Assembly (NCBI GenBank): GCA_015654525.1
Contig: JAATGT010000139.1
Span: 1 to 38,141 of the forward strand
Source of the DNA: Bacteroidales bacterium
GTDB lineage: Bacteria > Bacteroidota > Bacteroidia > Bacteroidales > Paludibacteraceae
Direction: 5' to 3'
DNA: 38,141 nt
The notes under the pieces were generated by a model, which saw only the letters and a list, made by a program, of their open reading frames with translations, was not told the origin of the DNA and searched no databases. Positions within the stretch are counted from its first letter, which is position 1, and every line of letters starts with the position of its first letter. A program made the translations under genes and the position numbers. Shown here piece after piece: positions 30,226-35,662 of the stretch.

Positions 30226-30708
30226 TTACTTTTCTGTAGATGAAAACACGTCGAGCTGCTGCTCAATTGATTCATTTTCGTTCAGACTTTTAAACCCTTC
30301 CTCCACTTCGTTCGTCGACGAAGAAACATCCACCAGGGATGCCAAAGCCTGAGATTTTATGGTATGCATATTGCTTACTTTATGACCATCTATAAATGCA
30401 TAATTGGCTTTATTATCAGCTGTAAACCGCTGTATACTGAACAGGCCTAAAACAACTACAGCCGCCACACTTGCCCAACGTATATAAGGAAGGAGGCTGA
30501 CATGCTTTTTCGGAGCTTTACGGTCGAAATGGCCTAAAATGACCTGCTCCGGTTTATACTTATCAGGCAAATCCCGTCTCGAAAGAAACGCCTTCAGCTG
30601 CCTCTCTTCATCGCCGGTAGTTAACCCTTCGTAATATTTTTCAATCAGCTTATCAGCCTCTCTGTTATTTATTTTGATATTTATCTTTATTCTCATACTG
30701 TTGTCCAT
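30226..30708 (-). CDS. Single-pass membrane anti-sigma-like protein
   Basis: A 160-residue protein with a charged N-terminal cytoplasmic region (about 1-70, including ADKLIEKYYEGLTTGDEERQL, typical of Bacteroidota anti-sigma heads). It has one transmembrane helix (about 73-93) and a short periplasmic tail rich in Ser/Glu. The start overlaps the sigma gene stop by 16 nt. The inferred role is to bind and restrain the upstream sigma factor. Start at residue 5 (MRIKINIK) is an alternative. Compare the first module, where the corresponding protein is fused to a barrel. Confidence 0.72.
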   Translation of the reverse strand: MDNSMRIKINIKINNREADKLIEKYYEGLTTGDEERQLKAFLSRRDLPDKYKPEQVILGHFDRKAPKKHVSLLPYIRWASVAAVVVLGLFSIQRFTADNKANYAFIDGHKVSNMHTIKSQALASLVDVSSSTNEVEEGFKSLNENESIEQQLDVFSSTEK

Positions 30709-31193
30709 TTTATATATTCCTCACGAACCTTTTTTCGGGCTCTCGACAAATTAACTCTCACTGCCTCCACATTGGTACCGGTAATTTCGGCAATCTCGTC
30801 CACTTCATACTCTTCCATATCCTTCATTTTGATAATGGCCTGTTGCAAGGGTGGCAGATTCTCAATAATCTTCTGCAGAACCTCTTCTGTATTTCTTCGT
30901 TCGAGCTGCAGGTAAGGATTATCAGTACCTGCACGTGCATAATACGACTCATCCAACGAATCCTGCCTGTTTTTCACTTTCAACCTGTCCAGACAATGAT
31001 TCTTTGTCACCGTTGTTGCAAAGGCAGCCGGACTATCATACTTGTCTAACGAATCACGCGTATGCCAAAGCTTGAGAAGAACTTCCTGTACGGCATCTTC
31101 TGCTTCCTGCTCTTCCACAAGTATTCGTTGCGCAATGTGGAATAACTTATCGCGTATGGGCAGTATCTCTGCCTTAAATCGTTCCTGACTCAT
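30693..31193 (-). CDS. ECF-family RNA polymerase sigma factor
   Basis: A 166-residue sigma factor with region 2 (about 10-75, including EEQEAEDAVQEVLLKLWHTR and the FATTVTKNHCLDRLK segment) and region 4 (about 105-160, with MEEYEVDEIAEITGTNVEAVRVNLSRARKKVRE). It heads a four-gene minus-strand set: sigma, anti-sigma, DUF protein, barrel. The region 4 wording is of the type seen in Bacteroides ECF sigma factors that control envelope genes. A -7 box (TAACTTTG, minus strand, 31313-31306) lies about 115 bp upstream. Targets are unknown. Confidence 0.93.
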   Translation of the reverse strand: MSQERFKAEILPIRDKLFHIAQRILVEEQEAEDAVQEVLLKLWHTRDSLDKYDSPAAFATTVTKNHCLDRLKVKNRQDSLDESYYARAGTDNPYLQLERRNTEEVLQKIIENLPPLQQAIIKMKDMEEYEVDEIAEITGTNVEAVRVNLSRARKKVREEYIKWTTV

Positions 31194-31397
31194 TTAATAG
31201 ATTGACGATTGAATGGGGGAAAACATAACATCGAAAACGATTATTTCTTTGATGATTTTAAATTTCTTTGATAATGAAATATTTAATTAGAAAAAACAAA
31301 CCTTGCAAAGTTATGTTTATTTTTCAATGCCTATTTTATTCCTCCTTGGAGATATCAAAATATTTATTAATCTCTAAATAATTTTAGCTTCTGAAAT

Positions 31398-31428
31398 TTT
31401 GTCATACAGAAACTATGTCGTATGTTTG
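31398..31428 (+). promoter_or_regulatory. Promoter of the arsR-arsN2-gshAB unit
   Basis: TTTG (31398-31401), 19 bp, TATGTTTG (31421-31428) is a full match to the Bacteroides consensus. Transcription would start near 31435, after the upstream in-frame ATG at 31415. This favours the start at 31448. Confidence 0.75.
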
Positions 31429-31435
31429 CGACATA
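31414..31435. promoter_or_regulatory. Probable ArsR operator overlapping the -7 element
   Basis: TATGTCG (31414-31420) and CGACATA (31429-31435) are perfect inverted copies. The 8-bp spacer is exactly the -7 box. A dimeric repressor bound here would block RNA polymerase directly. Confidence 0.65.
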
Positions 31436-31447
31436 AAACATTCCATT

Positions 31448-31762
31448 ATGAGAAAACCGGAAGTATTTGATAAAGAGCTACAAGATCTGGCTTGCTTTGC
31501 TAAAGTAATTTCGCATCCTGCACGATTAGCCATTTTGAAATATCTAGCTGAAACAAAAACCTGCATATCAGGCGATATATCGGACAAATTACCTTTAAGC
31601 CGTACTACTGTTTCACAACACTTAAAAGAGTTGAGAGATATGGGCTTGATAAGCGGCGAAATAGATGGATTAAAAATTAATTATTGCCTGTGCAGTTCTT
31701 CCATTTCAAAATCAATTTCTATGTTGAATAGATTTTTTAAAAGAATAGAGGAAAAAGAGTAG
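31448..31762 (+). CDS. arsR: ArsR/SmtB-family metalloid-responsive repressor
   Basis: A 104-residue winged-helix repressor (start at 31448; an in-frame ATG at 31415 lies inside the promoter). The recognition helix region is SGDISDKLPLSRTTVSQHLKELRDMGLI (about residues 41-68). Cys occur at positions 16, 39, 80 and 82. Cys39 precedes the helix-turn-helix, and Cys80/Cys82 are in YCLC after it. Together they could form a trigonal As(III) or Sb(III) site, though metal identity is not proven. It is the first gene of a three-gene plus-strand set and probably represses its own promoter through the inverted repeat at 31414-31435. Confidence 0.88.
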   Translation: MRKPEVFDKELQDLACFAKVISHPARLAILKYLAETKTCISGDISDKLPLSRTTVSQHLKELRDMGLISGEIDGLKINYCLCSSSISKSISMLNRFFKRIEEKE

Positions 31763-31828
31763 GAATACAGTAATCAAAAACTGCCCAGAGACTAAAATCA
31801 CAATTGTGCTTTATAAATTGTATCTGAA

Positions 31829-32272
31829 ATGATGAACCAGATTAACTATAGAATTTCTACCAATAAAGATTTGCCTCAAATAATAAAACTGATTTCGGAT
31901 AGCAATCTACCTATTGTAGATCTAATTGAAGGCAAACAGCTCTTTGTTGTGGCTGAAGTCAGCGCCCAAATAATTGCTTGTGCGGGACTGGAAATTCACA
32001 AAGAAAACGGATTGTTTCGCTCGTTGGCAGTAAGCCCAAGTTACCGGAACATGAAAATAGGTAAAGATATATTCACCAAGATCATTGCTTTAAGCAGAAA
32101 AAATCAAATAAAGCAACTTTATCTCTTGACCACTACAGCTGATTTATACTTTAGAAGAGGAGGATGGAAAGAAATTGACAGAACCGAAGTGCCTGATAAA
32201 ATACGTTCAACTTCAGAATTTTCATCAGTGTGTCCATCAACAGCAATGTGCATGAAATATCAACTCCACTAA
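31829..32272 (+). CDS. arsN2: GNAT acetyltransferase, ArsN2-like
   Basis: A 147-residue GNAT-fold enzyme using acetyl-CoA. The central strand/turn FRSLAVSPSYRNMKIGKDIF (residues about 72-92) is the CoA-binding motif A region. The C-terminus carries STSEFSSVCPSTAMCM (about 127-142), which I recognise as the ArsN2-type signature. ArsN enzymes acetylate the amino group of arsinothricin or phosphinothricin and give resistance. Its place directly after arsR (66 nt) and before gshAB (27 nt) supports a role in arsenical or electrophile detoxification. The true substrate is unproven; other amino-acid-like toxins are possible. Confidence 0.72.
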   Translation: MMNQINYRISTNKDLPQIIKLISDSNLPIVDLIEGKQLFVVAEVSAQIIACAGLEIHKENGLFRSLAVSPSYRNMKIGKDIFTKIIALSRKNQIKQLYLLTTTADLYFRRGGWKEIDRTEVPDKIRSTSEFSSVCPSTAMCMKYQLH

Positions 32273-32299
32273 TATAAAACATATTTTTTGAAATAGTAT

Positions 32300-34615
32300 A
32301 TGAAATTGAATCTGAACTTTACGAGTAATAAATTTCTTCCGAAAGGCAATGTTTGGCTAAAAGGATTATTTGGCATTGAAAAAGAAAATATCCGTGTTGA
32401 CAAACAAGGTGTAATCTCTCAGATTCCCCATCCGGCTGTATTTGGGGACAAGCTCAAACACCCTTACATCACCACCGATTTCTCGGAAAGTCAGGTTGAA
32501 ATGATTACTCCTCCCCTACCCGACATTAAGCAGGCATTGGGATTCCTGGAGGTAATTCACGACATAGTCAGCACAGAGCTAACCGACGAATTACTTTGGC
32601 CTCAGAGCATGCCGCCCATCCTACCCAACGAAGAGAGCATTCCCATTTCGCATTATTCAGCTATCGGAAAGAGAGATGCAGAGTACAGACAGAATCTGGC
32701 TTTGAAGTACGGACGAAAGAAGCAGACACTTTCGGGTATACATTTCAATGTTTCTTTGAATGAGAATTTGTTGAATCTGCTGTATCAAAACTCAGGACAA
32801 GATGCACCTTTTGATGAATTTCAGGATGAAATATACTTAAAAATTACCCGTCAGGTATTACGAAACAGATGGCTCTACGTACTGATATTTGGTGCGAGCC
32901 CTATTGTTGATGACACATTTGAATTGAGATGTAAGAATTTTCCGGTTCACATATGTACCAAAACCCGCGGTTTATCTCTTCGAAACAGCTGCTTTGGGTA
33001 CGGAAACCTGGAAGAGTTATATCCGGATTATAGCAGCACCAGCGCTTACCTTCAGAGCATAGATACTATGGTGGCAGAGAAGAAACTTCTTGCACCCAAA
33101 GAATTGTATGCGTCCGTGAGGCCCAAATTTATCAATAATTCAAAAGCAATATCTTATGCTGAATTGAGATTTATCGATATTAACCCGCTGAGCAAGGTCG
33201 GTGTCACTCCCGAAATGCTGCATTTTCTCCATTGGATAGTTATTTACGGATTACTAACCGACGAACCGGATGATTTTTCGACACAACACCAGGCTATTGC
33301 AAACGCCAACTACCGGAATGTTTCGCTATATGGCTTAAAGAGTGAGCTCGATTTAGCAACTATGTACGGCTCAACGCTAAATGCATGGGATGAAGCTAAA
33401 AGAATAATTCTCGACATGCAAAAGCTGTATGCTGAGCTCAGTATTGAGAACGTGGACTGCTTTAAAACATTACAATATTGCCTCGAAATGGTCAACCATC
33501 CGGAAAAAAGGATTGTTCAGCTAGTTTTAGGTAACACAGACAAAAAAGGATTTATACCCTTTCATCTGGAAAAAGCACAAAACTACTTTGAGGACACCCA
33601 GCGAAACACCTATAACTTCAAAGGATTGGAAGATATGGAACTTTCAACACAATTGATCCTTCGCGAGGCTGTACGCCGTGGTATCAGGTTTGACATTCTG
33701 GATAAAGGTGAGAATTTTATTCGGCTGAAACGGGACAATAACATTCAATACCTTTGTCAGGCAACCAAAACATCATTGGATAACTATGCCAGCATCCTGG
33801 CTATGGAAAATAAAGTAATAACTAAACTGATTCTGAACGAACACGGCATTCGGGTTCCCAAAGGGCTTAATTATGCAGACAGACTTACAGCAAAAGCTGA
33901 TTTTCTCTATTTCAGAAATAAGGCAGTGGTAATTAAACCCAAATCAACTAATTTCGGTTTAGGCATTACCATTATCAAAAAGAATGTTGACACTAGCGTA
34001 TTTGAAAGAGCTATTGACATTGCTTTTGATAATGACTCGAGCATTCTTATCGAAGAATTCATTGAAGGTAAAGAGTTTCGGATATTTGTAATGAATGATG
34101 AGGTAGTTGGTATTCTTCATCGCGTTCCGGCAAATATTACCGGCAATGGTATACAGAGTATTCGGGAACTGGTTGTTGAAAAAAATAAAGATCCGTTACG
34201 TGGAAAAGGTTATCACACACCGCTGGAAAAAATTCAATTAGGAGAAGCTGAAATGATGTTCTTAAATGCTCAGAATAAAAATTTCGATTACATCCCCCGC
34301 ATGAATGAAACAATATATCTACGCGAGAATTCAAATATAAGCACCGGTGGTGACAGTATTGATTTTACAGACGACATTCCCGATTCGTATAAAAAGATTG
34401 CAATTAAGGCTGCTCAGGCATTGGCTGTGCAAATTACCGGACTTGATATGATTATTCCCGATTACACACAGGAAGCAACGGACGATAACTATGCTATTAT
34501 AGAAATGAATTTCAATCCGGCTATACATATTCACTGCCATCCGTACAAAGGACAGAACCGGCGGTTAAATGAAAAATTACTCGATCTGCTTGGATTTCCG
34601 ATCGCAGACCAATAG
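32300..34615 (+). CDS. gshAB: Bifunctional glutamate-cysteine ligase/glutathione synthetase
   Basis: A 771-residue fusion that makes glutathione in two ATP-dependent steps. The N-terminal ligase (about 1-450) has FGIEKENIRVDKQG, SQVEMITPP and GIHFNVSLNE, typical of the GshA half. The C-terminal ATP-grasp (about 488-765) has VVIKPKSTNFGLGI, LIEEFIEGKEFRIFV and MNFNPAIHIH, the metal/ATP-binding end. The length matches GshF/GshAB fusions (about 750-780). The gene follows arsN2 by 27 nt with no terminator seen between. No arsenic pump or arsenate reductase is nearby, which is unusual for an ars-type set. The ligation order and the fusion are clear; regulation is inferred. Confidence 0.93.
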   Translation: MKLNLNFTSNKFLPKGNVWLKGLFGIEKENIRVDKQGVISQIPHPAVFGDKLKHPYITTDFSESQVEMITPPLPDIKQALGFLEVIHDIVSTELTDELLWPQSMPPILPNEESIPISHYSAIGKRDAEYRQNLALKYGRKKQTLSGIHFNVSLNENLLNLLYQNSGQDAPFDEFQDEIYLKITRQVLRNRWLYVLIFGASPIVDDTFELRCKNFPVHICTKTRGLSLRNSCFGYGNLEELYPDYSSTSAYLQSIDTMVAEKKLLAPKELYASVRPKFINNSKAISYAELRFIDINPLSKVGVTPEMLHFLHWIVIYGLLTDEPDDFSTQHQAIANANYRNVSLYGLKSELDLATMYGSTLNAWDEAKRIILDMQKLYAELSIENVDCFKTLQYCLEMVNHPEKRIVQLVLGNTDKKGFIPFHLEKAQNYFEDTQRNTYNFKGLEDMELSTQLILREAVRRGIRFDILDKGENFIRLKRDNNIQYLCQATKTSLDNYASILAMENKVITKLILNEHGIRVPKGLNYADRLTAKADFLYFRNKAVVIKPKSTNFGLGITIIKKNVDTSVFERAIDIAFDNDSSILIEEFIEGKEFRIFVMNDEVVGILHRVPANITGNGIQSIRELVVEKNKDPLRGKGYHTPLEKIQLGEAEMMFLNAQNKNFDYIPRMNETIYLRENSNISTGGDSIDFTDDIPDSYKKIAIKAAQALAVQITGLDMIIPDYTQEATDDNYAIIEMNFNPAIHIHCHPYKGQNRRLNEKLLDLLGFPIADQ

Positions 34616-35143
34616 AATCTGCAACTAATTTTTAGACGTTTCAAGCACAGGCATCTCTACAATAATGGCAGTTCCATGTCCCGGTTCACCAGAAATTGTC
34701 AGGCTGCCATTAAGCAAGTAGACCCTTTCCCGCATACCTATAAGTCCGTACGAATCGTATCGTGTTTTAAGATTTGAATCTATTCCTATCCCGTTATCAG
34801 CAATTTTTAAAATTATTTTATTATCAATAATATTTAGCGAAATCATCACTTCGGTCGCTTTTGAATGTTTTGCTACATTGCTTAAAGCCTCCTGAAGTAT
34901 TCTAAATAATGCAATCGATTGTTCTGGTTCTAAATTTAATTCATTTACAGGATAATCTACCTTACATGCTATTTTGTATCGTTCAGAAAATTCCACAATG
35001 TATAGCCTGGCAGCTTCAATAAAACCAACTAAATCAAGTAATTCAGGTCTAAGTCCTGTCATAATTTTACGGGTAGTTCTAATTGTGGAATCAAGAAGGG
35101 CATAAAGTTGTTCAAAGTTGGATGTTACTTTTTTTAGTTCTTC

Positions 35144-35146
35144 TTA
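35144..35146 (-). other. Second in-frame TAA in the multi-PAS kinase
   Basis: Codon 632 reads TAA between VIRSVK and EELKKVTSN, just after the phospho-acceptor helix. The frame is open again up to the normal stop at 34625. Confidence 0.9.
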
Positions 35147-35662
35147 TTTTACGCTTCTAATAACATTCTGCTTAAACATTCCCATATCAATTTTGAGGGC
35201 TATAAGCATTTGTCCTAATTCATCATGAATCTCCCTGGCCAACATCACCCGCTCTTCTTCACGAATATTTTGTAAATGAGCTGCAAAGCTTTTTAATTGT
35301 TGCTGAGAACTTTTCAACGCCTCTTCAACCAATTTTCGTTTTGTTATATTACGCACCATGGCAATAACTTTTTCCTCTCCAAAAGGTAATACAAAACATT
35401 CGAAAGCATTAACCCCATTCTTTAGAGTCATTTCATATTCAACAGACATTGTTGTTTTTTCCCCTAACGCTGCATCTATCGTATTCTTTAGTGTTCTGCC
35501 AATAGGATCAGGAAAAACATCTAACACAGCTTTATTTATAAAATCCTCAAATGGCAAAGCAAGATCGTCAGCATTCCCTGTTTTGAAGTCGAGAAAAACG
35601 CCTTTAGAATCTAAAATAAATATTAAATCAGGGATAGCTGTCAGAATAGACTTTGTATACTC

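What the first reader, a model, noticed from the sequence alone, without database searches (positions are those of the whole stretch)
31398..34615. arsR-arsN2-gshAB: arsenical-type repressor controlling an ArsN2-like acetyltransferase and glutathione synthesis
Seen: three plus-strand genes with gaps of 66 and 27 nt, one consensus promoter, and no terminator between them. The first is an ArsR with Cys at 16, 39, 80 and 82. The second has the ArsN2-type STSEFSSVCPSTAMCM ending. The third is a full GshAB fusion. Known: ArsR proteins respond to As(III)/Sb(III), ArsN enzymes acetylate arsinothricin-like amino acids, and glutathione buffers thiol-reactive metalloids. Inferred: a compact detoxification unit that makes its own thiol on demand, in place of the usual pump (ArsB/Acr3) and reductase (ArsC), which are absent here. 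I do not recall this gene set being described as a system.
Basis: partly seen in the sequence, partly recalled or inferred. Interest (0 to 1): 0.72.

Follow-up and report, generated by a model that had tools for sequence, protein, structure and literature searches.

The report
Arsenic operon that makes glutathione
A bacterium carries a stripped-down arsenic-resistance operon whose largest gene encodes the glutathione-making enzyme; in its relatives that gene sits between the usual arsenic genes and the arsenic pump, so glutathione here looks like part of arsenic detoxification rather than general metabolism.

Summary
An ArsR repressor, a true ArsN2 and a full GshAB lie in tandem behind one promoter whose -7 box is the loop of a perfect palindrome. 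The palindrome occurs at 25 sites in 23 of 48 genomes of the genus (own included), always ahead of the same arsR. These genes do not replace pump and reductase; they are what is left of a larger ars operon. In the 6 relatives of the ars-linked GshAB clade with full context, arsC lies upstream and acr3 directly downstream of gshAB; arsN2 adjoins gshAB in 3. The window lineage lacks both genes here but keeps arsC and acr3 on another contig under a different ArsR. ArsN2 is not ArsN1; its substrate is unknown and its fold is closest to N-acetylglutamate synthase. Of interest: gshAB is rare (5 of 48 genomes) and all 5 copies lie in ArsR operons; no glutaredoxin was found in this draft genome; and ArsN2 pairs with gshAB again in a second operon type, MarR-ArsN2-MATE-GshAB (4 loci). 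My searches of open papers found no gshAB described inside an ars operon. New variant of a known kind.

The parts
31398..31428 (+). Bacteroidota-type promoter: TTTG (31398-31401), 19-nt spacer, TATGTTTG (31421-31428)
   Evidence: Read; a TTTG / TATGTTTG layout recurs ahead of arsR in L085 and L122. Consensus recalled.
31414..31435 (.). ArsR operator, perfect inverted repeat TATGTCG-N8-CGACATA, with the -7 box as its loop
   Evidence: 25 exact sites in 23 of 48 genomes, own included, 0 control matches; all 25 precede an ArsR1 gene, 24 within 15 nt and 1 (G505) at about 230 nt; one base off in G525; same arms in a Hymenobacter plasmid ars operon. Not found in L001, and only with 3 mismatches in L003.
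31448..31762 (+). arsR (ArsR1), 104 aa; Cys39 and Cys80 align with Cys41 and Cys82 of the ArArsR type; Cys82 extra; no C-terminal Cys
   Evidence: start chosen at ATG 31448.
31749..31828 (+). breakpoint zone: DNA similarity to the G001 operon stops at 31749, inside arsR's tail; arsC is missing
   Evidence: blastn; gene comparison.
31829..32272 (+). arsN2, 147-aa GNAT N-acetyltransferase
   Evidence: NF040501 147.1 bits, cut-off 125; model pLDDT 90.9, best PDB match N-acetylglutamate synthase 2r8v.
32300..34615 (+). gshAB, bifunctional glutamate-cysteine ligase / glutathione synthetase, 771 aa
   Evidence: NF002688 903 bits, full length; PDB relatives 3ln7 and 3ln6; ars-linked clade support 100/100.
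34616..34624 (+). site where relatives carry acr3; here gshAB ends 9 nt from a convergent sensor-kinase ORF
   Evidence: acr3 match starts within 150 nt after gshAB in 7 of 7 other ars-type loci; in G500 the kinase homologue lies beyond acr3.

Best explanation
It is a reduced ars operon of Bacteroidales. Inferred from comparison: the fuller layout is arsR-[DUF1573]-arsC-[arsM]-[arsN2]-gshAB-acr3; in this lineage arsC (with the end of arsR) and acr3 have gone from this locus, while a second locus on contig C146 (arsR2-DUF1573-arsC-acr3) can supply reductase and pump. Inferred mechanism: without metalloid, ArsR1 sits on the palindrome over the -7 box and blocks transcription. Trivalent arsenic (As(III), MAs(III)) binds Cys39/Cys80 and probably Cys82, ArsR1 leaves, and arsN2 and gshAB are made. 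GshAB then makes glutathione in a cell in which no second GshAB and no glutaredoxin was found; glutathione complexes trivalent arsenic and protects protein thiols until the pump encoded elsewhere removes As(III). ArsN2 acetylates a glutamate-like amino group of an unknown toxic or arsenic-derived compound. Not shown: induction, arsenic binding by this ArsR, glutathione production, and any activity of ArsN2.
For: G001 has arsR-arsC-arsN2-gshAB-acr3 next to the same left-hand genes (exonuclease, dnaN, barrel protein, PG0214-type sigma factor; G001 has an extra arsR2 cluster between dnaN and the barrel gene). 7 of 8 ars-type gshAB loci have acr3 directly downstream; the window is the exception. 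The 7 ars-linked GshAB rows form one clade, 100/100, window sister to G001 100/96, so loss is the simplest reading. Of 28 ArsR1 units seen, 24 have enough contig; 22 of 24 carry arsC and acr3 or an acr3-like gene (4 at 32-33% identity); the others are the window and one G505 unit with other exporters. Own genome: acr3 444 bits, cut-off 282.8, next to arsC on C146; this acr3 is 89-90% identical to congeners G505, G526 and G034, which argues against foreign DNA. gshAB in 5 of 48 genomes of the genus and 2 of 101 of the family sample, own included; all 5 in ArsR operons. No glutaredoxin (0 hits; rings in 13 of 14 controls); best glutathione-reductase match 238 bits, cut-off 556. ArArsR mutants: Cys41 and Cys82 essential, Cys107/108 dispensable.
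Against: No expression data. ArArsR Cys80, needed for As(III) but not MAs(III), aligns with Asn78 here, so As(III) sensing by Cys39-Cys80-Cys82 is assumed. The draft has 361 contigs and is 88.98% complete; the losses rest on one contig without read support. gshAB in G525, L001 and L003 has no arsN2 beside it, so the two genes are separable. The operator is not conserved in L001 and L003. The C146 ArsC is below its curated cut-offs (134.8 against 174.3 bits). Stand-alone gshA/gshB, glutathione transferases and a second glutathione-reductase model were not searched. An E. coli-type promoter match (11 of 12) inside arsN2 at 32175-32202 could drive gshAB alone.
Confidence: 0.66

Rival explanations
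1. Specialised organoarsenical module: after losing arsC and acr3, the unit answers to methylarsenite or other organoarsenicals made by neighbours, with glutathione and ArsN2 as the defence, while C146 handles inorganic arsenic.
For: The two ArArsR cysteines sufficient for MAs(III) sensing are kept, the third As(III) cysteine is Asn78 here. No ArsM ortholog found in the own genome (best 23% identity, 26.9 bits), so MAs(III) would come from outside. Inorganic-arsenic genes sit elsewhere.
Against: All 24 aligned ArsR1 rows share C39, C80 and C82, although most of their operons carry arsC and acr3, so this set probably serves As(III) too.
Confidence: 0.13
2. Decaying remnant: with arsC-acr3 present at a second locus, this operon lost its purpose and is being dismantled.
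For: Two losses at one locus; arsR lacks the C-terminal Cys that 30 of 31 aligned rows have; the next gene downstream, a sensor kinase, is split into three ORFs here but is one 801-aa ORF in G500.
Against: Operator, arsR, arsN2 and gshAB are intact, and end branches are no longer than in the sister G001 (gshAB 0.18 against 0.26; arsN2 0.51 against 0.52). The C-terminal Cys pair is dispensable in ArArsR, and the ArsR beside gshAB in L009 lacks one too.
Confidence: 0.12
3. gshAB is a general antioxidant or electrophile-defence gene whose place in ars operons is incidental.
For: Relatives of gshAB sit beside MATE pumps (16 of 27 Bacteroidota loci) or formaldehyde genes, and one plasmid copy has neither ars genes nor a pump nearby; an internal promoter-like site lies upstream of gshAB.
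Against: Rare in the genus and, where present (5 of 5), inside ArsR operons; separate pairing with acr3-arsC in Haploplasma and with an arsB-type pump, arsC, arsD and arsA on Paenibacillus plasmids.
Confidence: 0.09

Closest known systems
ArArsR type of ArsR repressor and the arsRMC operon of Arsenicibacter rosenii (PMC11868830)
   Same: Cys39 and Cys80 align with its essential Cys41 and Cys82, using Spirosoma proteins with the same cysteine set as stand-ins; operators share TCG-N8-CGA.
   Different: Its third As(III) ligand Cys80 is Asn78 here, with an extra Cys82; its operon has arsM and arsC, no arsN2 or gshAB.
Bacteroidota ars operons with ACR3 (for example Spirosoma arsR-arsM-arsC-acr3)
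   Same: Same regulator kind and same neighbours as in the window's relatives.
   Different: The window copy has no arsC, arsM or acr3, and carries gshAB.
ArsN1/ArsN2 genes of ars operons (PMC6465285)
   Same: The window GNAT is ArsN2 by curated model.
   Different: Tested arsinothricin acetylation is for ArsN1; ArsN2 is the clade nearer N-acetylglutamate synthases and was not tested there.
Accessory glutathione operons: plasmid gstA-gloB of Klebsiella (PMC13274388, passages) and gshAB with formaldehyde genes on plasmids
   Same: Glutathione chemistry carried in an accessory detoxification unit.
   Different: Other toxic substrate and no ars regulator.

Membership tests
ars operon | ArsR-family repressor with a conserved operator at the promoter | tested here: met
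ars operon | arsenite pump (acr3 or arsB) in the same operon | tested here: not met
   Absent in the window; present in 7 of 7 other ars-type gshAB loci and elsewhere in this genome.
ars operon | transcription induced by trivalent arsenic | not testable with these tools
   No expression data.
[quoted passage not shown]
   Cys41 and Cys82 positions met (window C39, C80); Cys80 position is N78, with C82 two residues past C80. ArArsR itself was not held; Spirosoma proteins stood in.
ArsN2 | score above the curated NF040501 cut-off | tested here: met
   147.1 against 125 bits.
ArsN1 (arsinothricin acetyltransferase) | match to the ArsN1 models NF040503/NF040504 | tested here: not met
   Neither is among the 10 families matched at E 0.1.
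GshAB | fused GshA and GshB domains over full length | tested here: met
   Residues 19-767 of 771, 903 bits; 3ln7 over residues 16-766.

The most novel reading that the evidence does not exclude
Glutathione synthesis in these bacteria is an inducible, laterally mobile metalloid-detoxification trait, and ArsN2 acts with it: ArsN2 acetylates the free gamma-glutamyl amino group of glutathione, gamma-glutamylcysteine or their arsenic or toxin adducts (or protects GshA from glutamate-analogue toxins), and the product is handed to ACR3 or MATE. That would explain why ArsN2, an N-acetylglutamate-synthase-like enzyme of unknown substrate, sits next to gshAB in two different operon types, and why an ArsN1-like enzyme takes its place in a variant of the second.
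Probability: 0.13. Interest if true: 0.76.

Novelty: new variant of a known kind. Interest (0 to 1): 0.5.

Why it matters
Bacterial glutathione is usually treated as housekeeping. Here its synthesis looks like an accessory, ArsR-controlled trait in a genome without detected glutaredoxin, which would make the role of the thiol in arsenic handling testable with little background. The repeated ArsN2-GshAB pairing is a concrete lead to the unknown substrate of ArsN2. The window also shows ars functions split between two loci with different ArsR repressors.

Tried and rejected
Read first as a pump-free detoxification system: rejected after the corresponding site in G001 showed arsC and acr3. I suspected that the lost C-terminal Cys of ArsR1 would blind the sensor; dropped because Cys107 and Cys108 are dispensable in ArArsR. 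I thought C146 might hold the relocated arsC-acr3 of this very operon; its acr3 is nearer to G505, G526 and G034 (89-90%) than to the gshAB-linked copies (about 80% for G525 and L029, 83% for L001 and L003), so probably another acr3 lineage. I thought that the loss also removed a front extension of ArsN2; not secure, since L002 and G519 lack it as well. E. coli-type promoters: number below shuffles. Rfam found nothing at 30600-35600; no tRNA in the window. A phylum-wide sample gave 2 of 395 genomes with gshAB, own included. G519, whose contig ends just after a related arsN2, has no gshAB in the assembly.

Rows dropped: of 79 loci, L036-L079 (44) match only the ATP-grasp part and were not used. 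In one search, G115, G242, G336 and G135 were dropped for the same reason. The ArsR alignment caught 24 of 28 ArsR1 units; G492, G508, G516 and G528 were missed by my filter. In the GshAB tree 41 of 45 intended rows were found by a motif; L019, L021, L022 and L024 were lost, and partial loci were left out. Of 14 plasmid records with gshAB I looked at 6. ArsR1 units were collected because of operator, arsN2 or gshAB, so they are not a random sample.
Full report
WHAT IS THERE. Three intact plus-strand genes at 31448-31762, 31829-32272 and 32300-34615, gaps 66 and 27 nt: an ArsR/SmtB repressor (NF033788, 60.7 bits, cut-off 55), ArsN2 (NF040501, 147.1, cut-off 125) and a full-length GshAB (NF002688, 903, cut-off 425) (Pfam). 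The host shares a genus with G514, whose contig has the same length (100,757) as that of L002, titled Paludibacter sp.. From memory, G001 (3,685,504 bp) is P. propionicigenes.

PROMOTER AND OPERATOR. TTTG at 31398-31401 and TATGTTTG at 31421-31428, 19 nt apart, fit the Bacteroidota -33/-7 promoter (consensus recalled). The -7 box is the 8-nt loop of a perfect palindrome, TATGTCG-TATGTTTG-CGACATA (31414-31435). The arms occur exactly at 25 sites in 23 of 48 genomes of the genus, own included; the reversed control pattern gave none. All 25 loops fit TAnnTTTG. All 25 sites precede an ArsR1 gene, 24 within 15 nt and one in G505 at about 230 nt. G525 and G526 have a one-base variant; G497's ArsR1 has no such site. 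A Hymenobacter plasmid ars operon has TATGTCG-TATATTTG-CGACATA. L001 has no such site and L003 only with 3 mismatches. The footprinted site of ArArsR (PMC11868830, parts 1 and 2 of 3 read) has the same TCG-N8-CGA core.

THE OPERON IN RELATIVES. gshAB was found in 5 of 48 genomes of the genus, 2 of 101 of the family sample, 18 of 393 of the order sample at E 1e-50, 4 of these ATP-grasp-only, and 2 of 395 of the phylum sample at E 1e-80, own included each time. Of 27 Bacteroidota gshAB loci, 8 are of ars type (window, L085, L122, L002, L124, L001, L003, and L029, cut upstream), 16 have a MATE pump directly upstream, 1 (L007) has neither, and 2 (L117, L023) are cut by contig ends. These loci were found by likeness to the window's GshAB and are not a random sample. 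In 7 of the 8 ars-type loci acr3 follows gshAB directly; the window is the exception. arsC lies upstream in 6 of the 7 with upstream context; again the window is the exception. arsN2 is directly upstream of gshAB in 4 of 8 (window, L085, L122, L002).

In G001 the operon reads arsR-arsC-arsN2-gshAB-acr3 and has the same left-hand genes as the window (exonuclease, dnaN, barrel protein, PG0214-type sigma factor), except that G001 has an arsR2 cluster with a permease between dnaN and the barrel gene; its right-hand flank differs. In G500 the operon reads arsR-DUF1573-arsC-arsM-arsN2-gshAB-acr3, with the sigma-factor gene on the left and the homologue of the window's sensor kinase beyond acr3 on the right, so the site matches on both sides. 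DNA similarity between window and G001 stops at 31749, just before arsR's stop: arsR's tail and arsC are gone there, and acr3 is gone between gshAB and the kinase. The 7 full ars-type GshAB rows form one clade (100/100) with the window sister to G001 (100/96), so loss is the simplest reading.

WHERE PUMP AND REDUCTASE ARE. The own genome has one acr3 (444 bits, cut-off 282.8), on contig C146, in the order arsR2-DUF1573-arsC-acr3. The ArsR1 operator is not on that contig even with 3 mismatches. Its acr3 is 89-90% identical to congeners G505, G526 and G034, and about 80% to the gshAB-linked copy of G525: it belongs to the genus but is probably another acr3 lineage. Its ArsC is closest to the thioredoxin-type arsenate reductase model, below the cut-off (134.8 against 174.3 bits), and is 84-92% identical to the 12 congeners' arsC genes listed. 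No ArsM ortholog was found (best 23% identity over about 100 residues).

THE REGULATOR. [quoted passage not shown] Cys43, Cys107 and Cys108 are dispensable. Two Spirosoma plasmid ArsRs carry exactly that cysteine set and anchor the alignment: ArArsR Cys41 is window Cys39, Cys82 is window Cys80, Cys80 is window Asn78; window Cys82 is extra. All 24 aligned ArsR1 rows share Cys39, Cys80 and Cys82, and most of their operons carry arsC and acr3, so the set is probably a working site in a shifted register; this is inference. Thirty of 31 aligned ArsR rows have a Cys near the C-terminus; the window does not, nor does the ArsR beside gshAB in L009. In a model of the window ArsR (pLDDT 86.1) residue 39 is next to a short strand (40-41), 80 in strand 76-81, and 82 just after it; I had no coordinates to measure distances.

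ARSN2. The paper that named both says that ArsN2 is the clade nearer N-acetylglutamate synthases and studies ArsN1 (PMC6465285, passages). Sequence relatives in the PDB are ArgA-type (5yge, 5yo2), and the model (pLDDT 90.9) matches N-acetylglutamate synthase best (2r8v, 3d2p), with many other GNATs close behind. ArsN2 from the four gshAB operons groups with that of G519 (90/86), apart from the other 11 of the genus; the four alone have 77/79, so support is modest. G519's contig ends just after arsN2, and no gshAB was found in that genome. Twelve of the 16 arsN2-bearing genomes of the genus show no gshAB, so ArsN2 does not need it.

A SECOND PAIRING. In 4 of the 16 MATE-type loci (L005, L006, L025, L030) the order is MarR-[cysK]-GNAT-MATE-gshAB (MarR and cysK named by eye), and all four GNATs pass the ArsN2 cut-off (136.9-147.1 bits). 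In L113 the GNAT is ArsN1-like (120.8 bits, cut-off 170). Outside Bacteroidota, of 20 GshAB loci (L034 partial), 8 have a MATE gene directly upstream and 9 an ArsR-family gene nearby. Haploplasma has arsR-acr3-arsC-gshAB. Two Paenibacillus plasmid records that share protein accessions have arsR-trxB-MATE-gshAB followed by arsR-arsR-pump-arsC-arsD-arsA. Of the other four plasmid loci viewed, one has MATE-gshAB, two have formaldehyde genes and one has neither. So gshAB with an exporter and a metalloid or stress regulator recurs, and among the 25 informative Bacteroidota loci only the window and L007 lack an adjacent exporter.

GLUTATHIONE CONTEXT. In the own genome no glutaredoxin was found at E 0.001 (the model rings in 13 of 14 controls), and the best match to one glutathione-reductase model is far below its cut-off (238 of 556 bits). 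The genome is 88.98% complete, and stand-alone gshA/gshB and glutathione transferases were not searched, so absence is not proof. It fits glutathione acting as a ligand or sink rather than as a glutaredoxin-cycled reductant.

LITERATURE. Nine searches (open-licence PMC only; two searches listed 20 of 46 and 20 of 55 papers) showed no gshAB described inside an ars operon. I read passages of PMC6465285, PMC7374977, PMC9144182, PMC8038741, PMC6205960, PMC7278568, PMC7733945 and PMC13274388, and parts 1 and 2 of 3 of PMC11868830. gshAB induction by arsenic is reported in Exiguobacterium, where it is treated as an oxidative-stress gene (PMC7374977, passages). Subscription papers were not searched.

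VERDICT. Real, conserved and ars-linked, but most likely a reduced form of a gshAB-bearing ars operon, not a pump-free system. New variant of a known kind, interest 0.5.

Noticed in passing
L005, L006, L025, L030 (upstream of gshAB): MarR-[cysK]-ArsN2-MATE-gshAB cassette; all four GNATs pass the ArsN2 cut-off.
   Followed up: partly
L113:1016-5189: ArsN1-like GNAT (below cut-off) directly ahead of MATE-gshAB, with a divergent MarR-like gene.
   Followed up: partly
L190, L194 (Paenibacillus plasmids): arsR-trxB-MATE-gshAB cassette next to an arsenic pump, arsC, arsD and arsA.
   Followed up: no
L026:8037-12226: Haploplasma modicum, a mollicute, has arsR-acr3-arsC-gshAB.
   Followed up: no
L085:9236-9790, L122:8424-8978 and other congeners: ArsN2 carries a Cys-containing N-terminal extension (about 40 aa or more) that by eye resembles the start of ArsM; absent in the window, L002 and G519.
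   Followed up: no
L167:5918-12130 (G505): An ArsR1 unit with the same operator but with thioredoxin-like, ABC-type and P-type-ATPase-like genes in place of arsC and acr3 (named by eye).
   Followed up: partly
L085:2913-5770: G001 has an arsR2-thioredoxin-like-permease cluster between dnaN and the barrel gene; the window has only about 570 nt there.
   Followed up: no
window:34625-37039: Sensor-kinase gene split into three ORFs; the G500 homologue is one 801-aa ORF (L122:12723-15128).
   Followed up: no
window:11488-18615: 2069-aa SprB/PKD-repeat protein with a type IX secretion tail (CHU_C), followed by a PorP/SprF gene.
   Followed up: no
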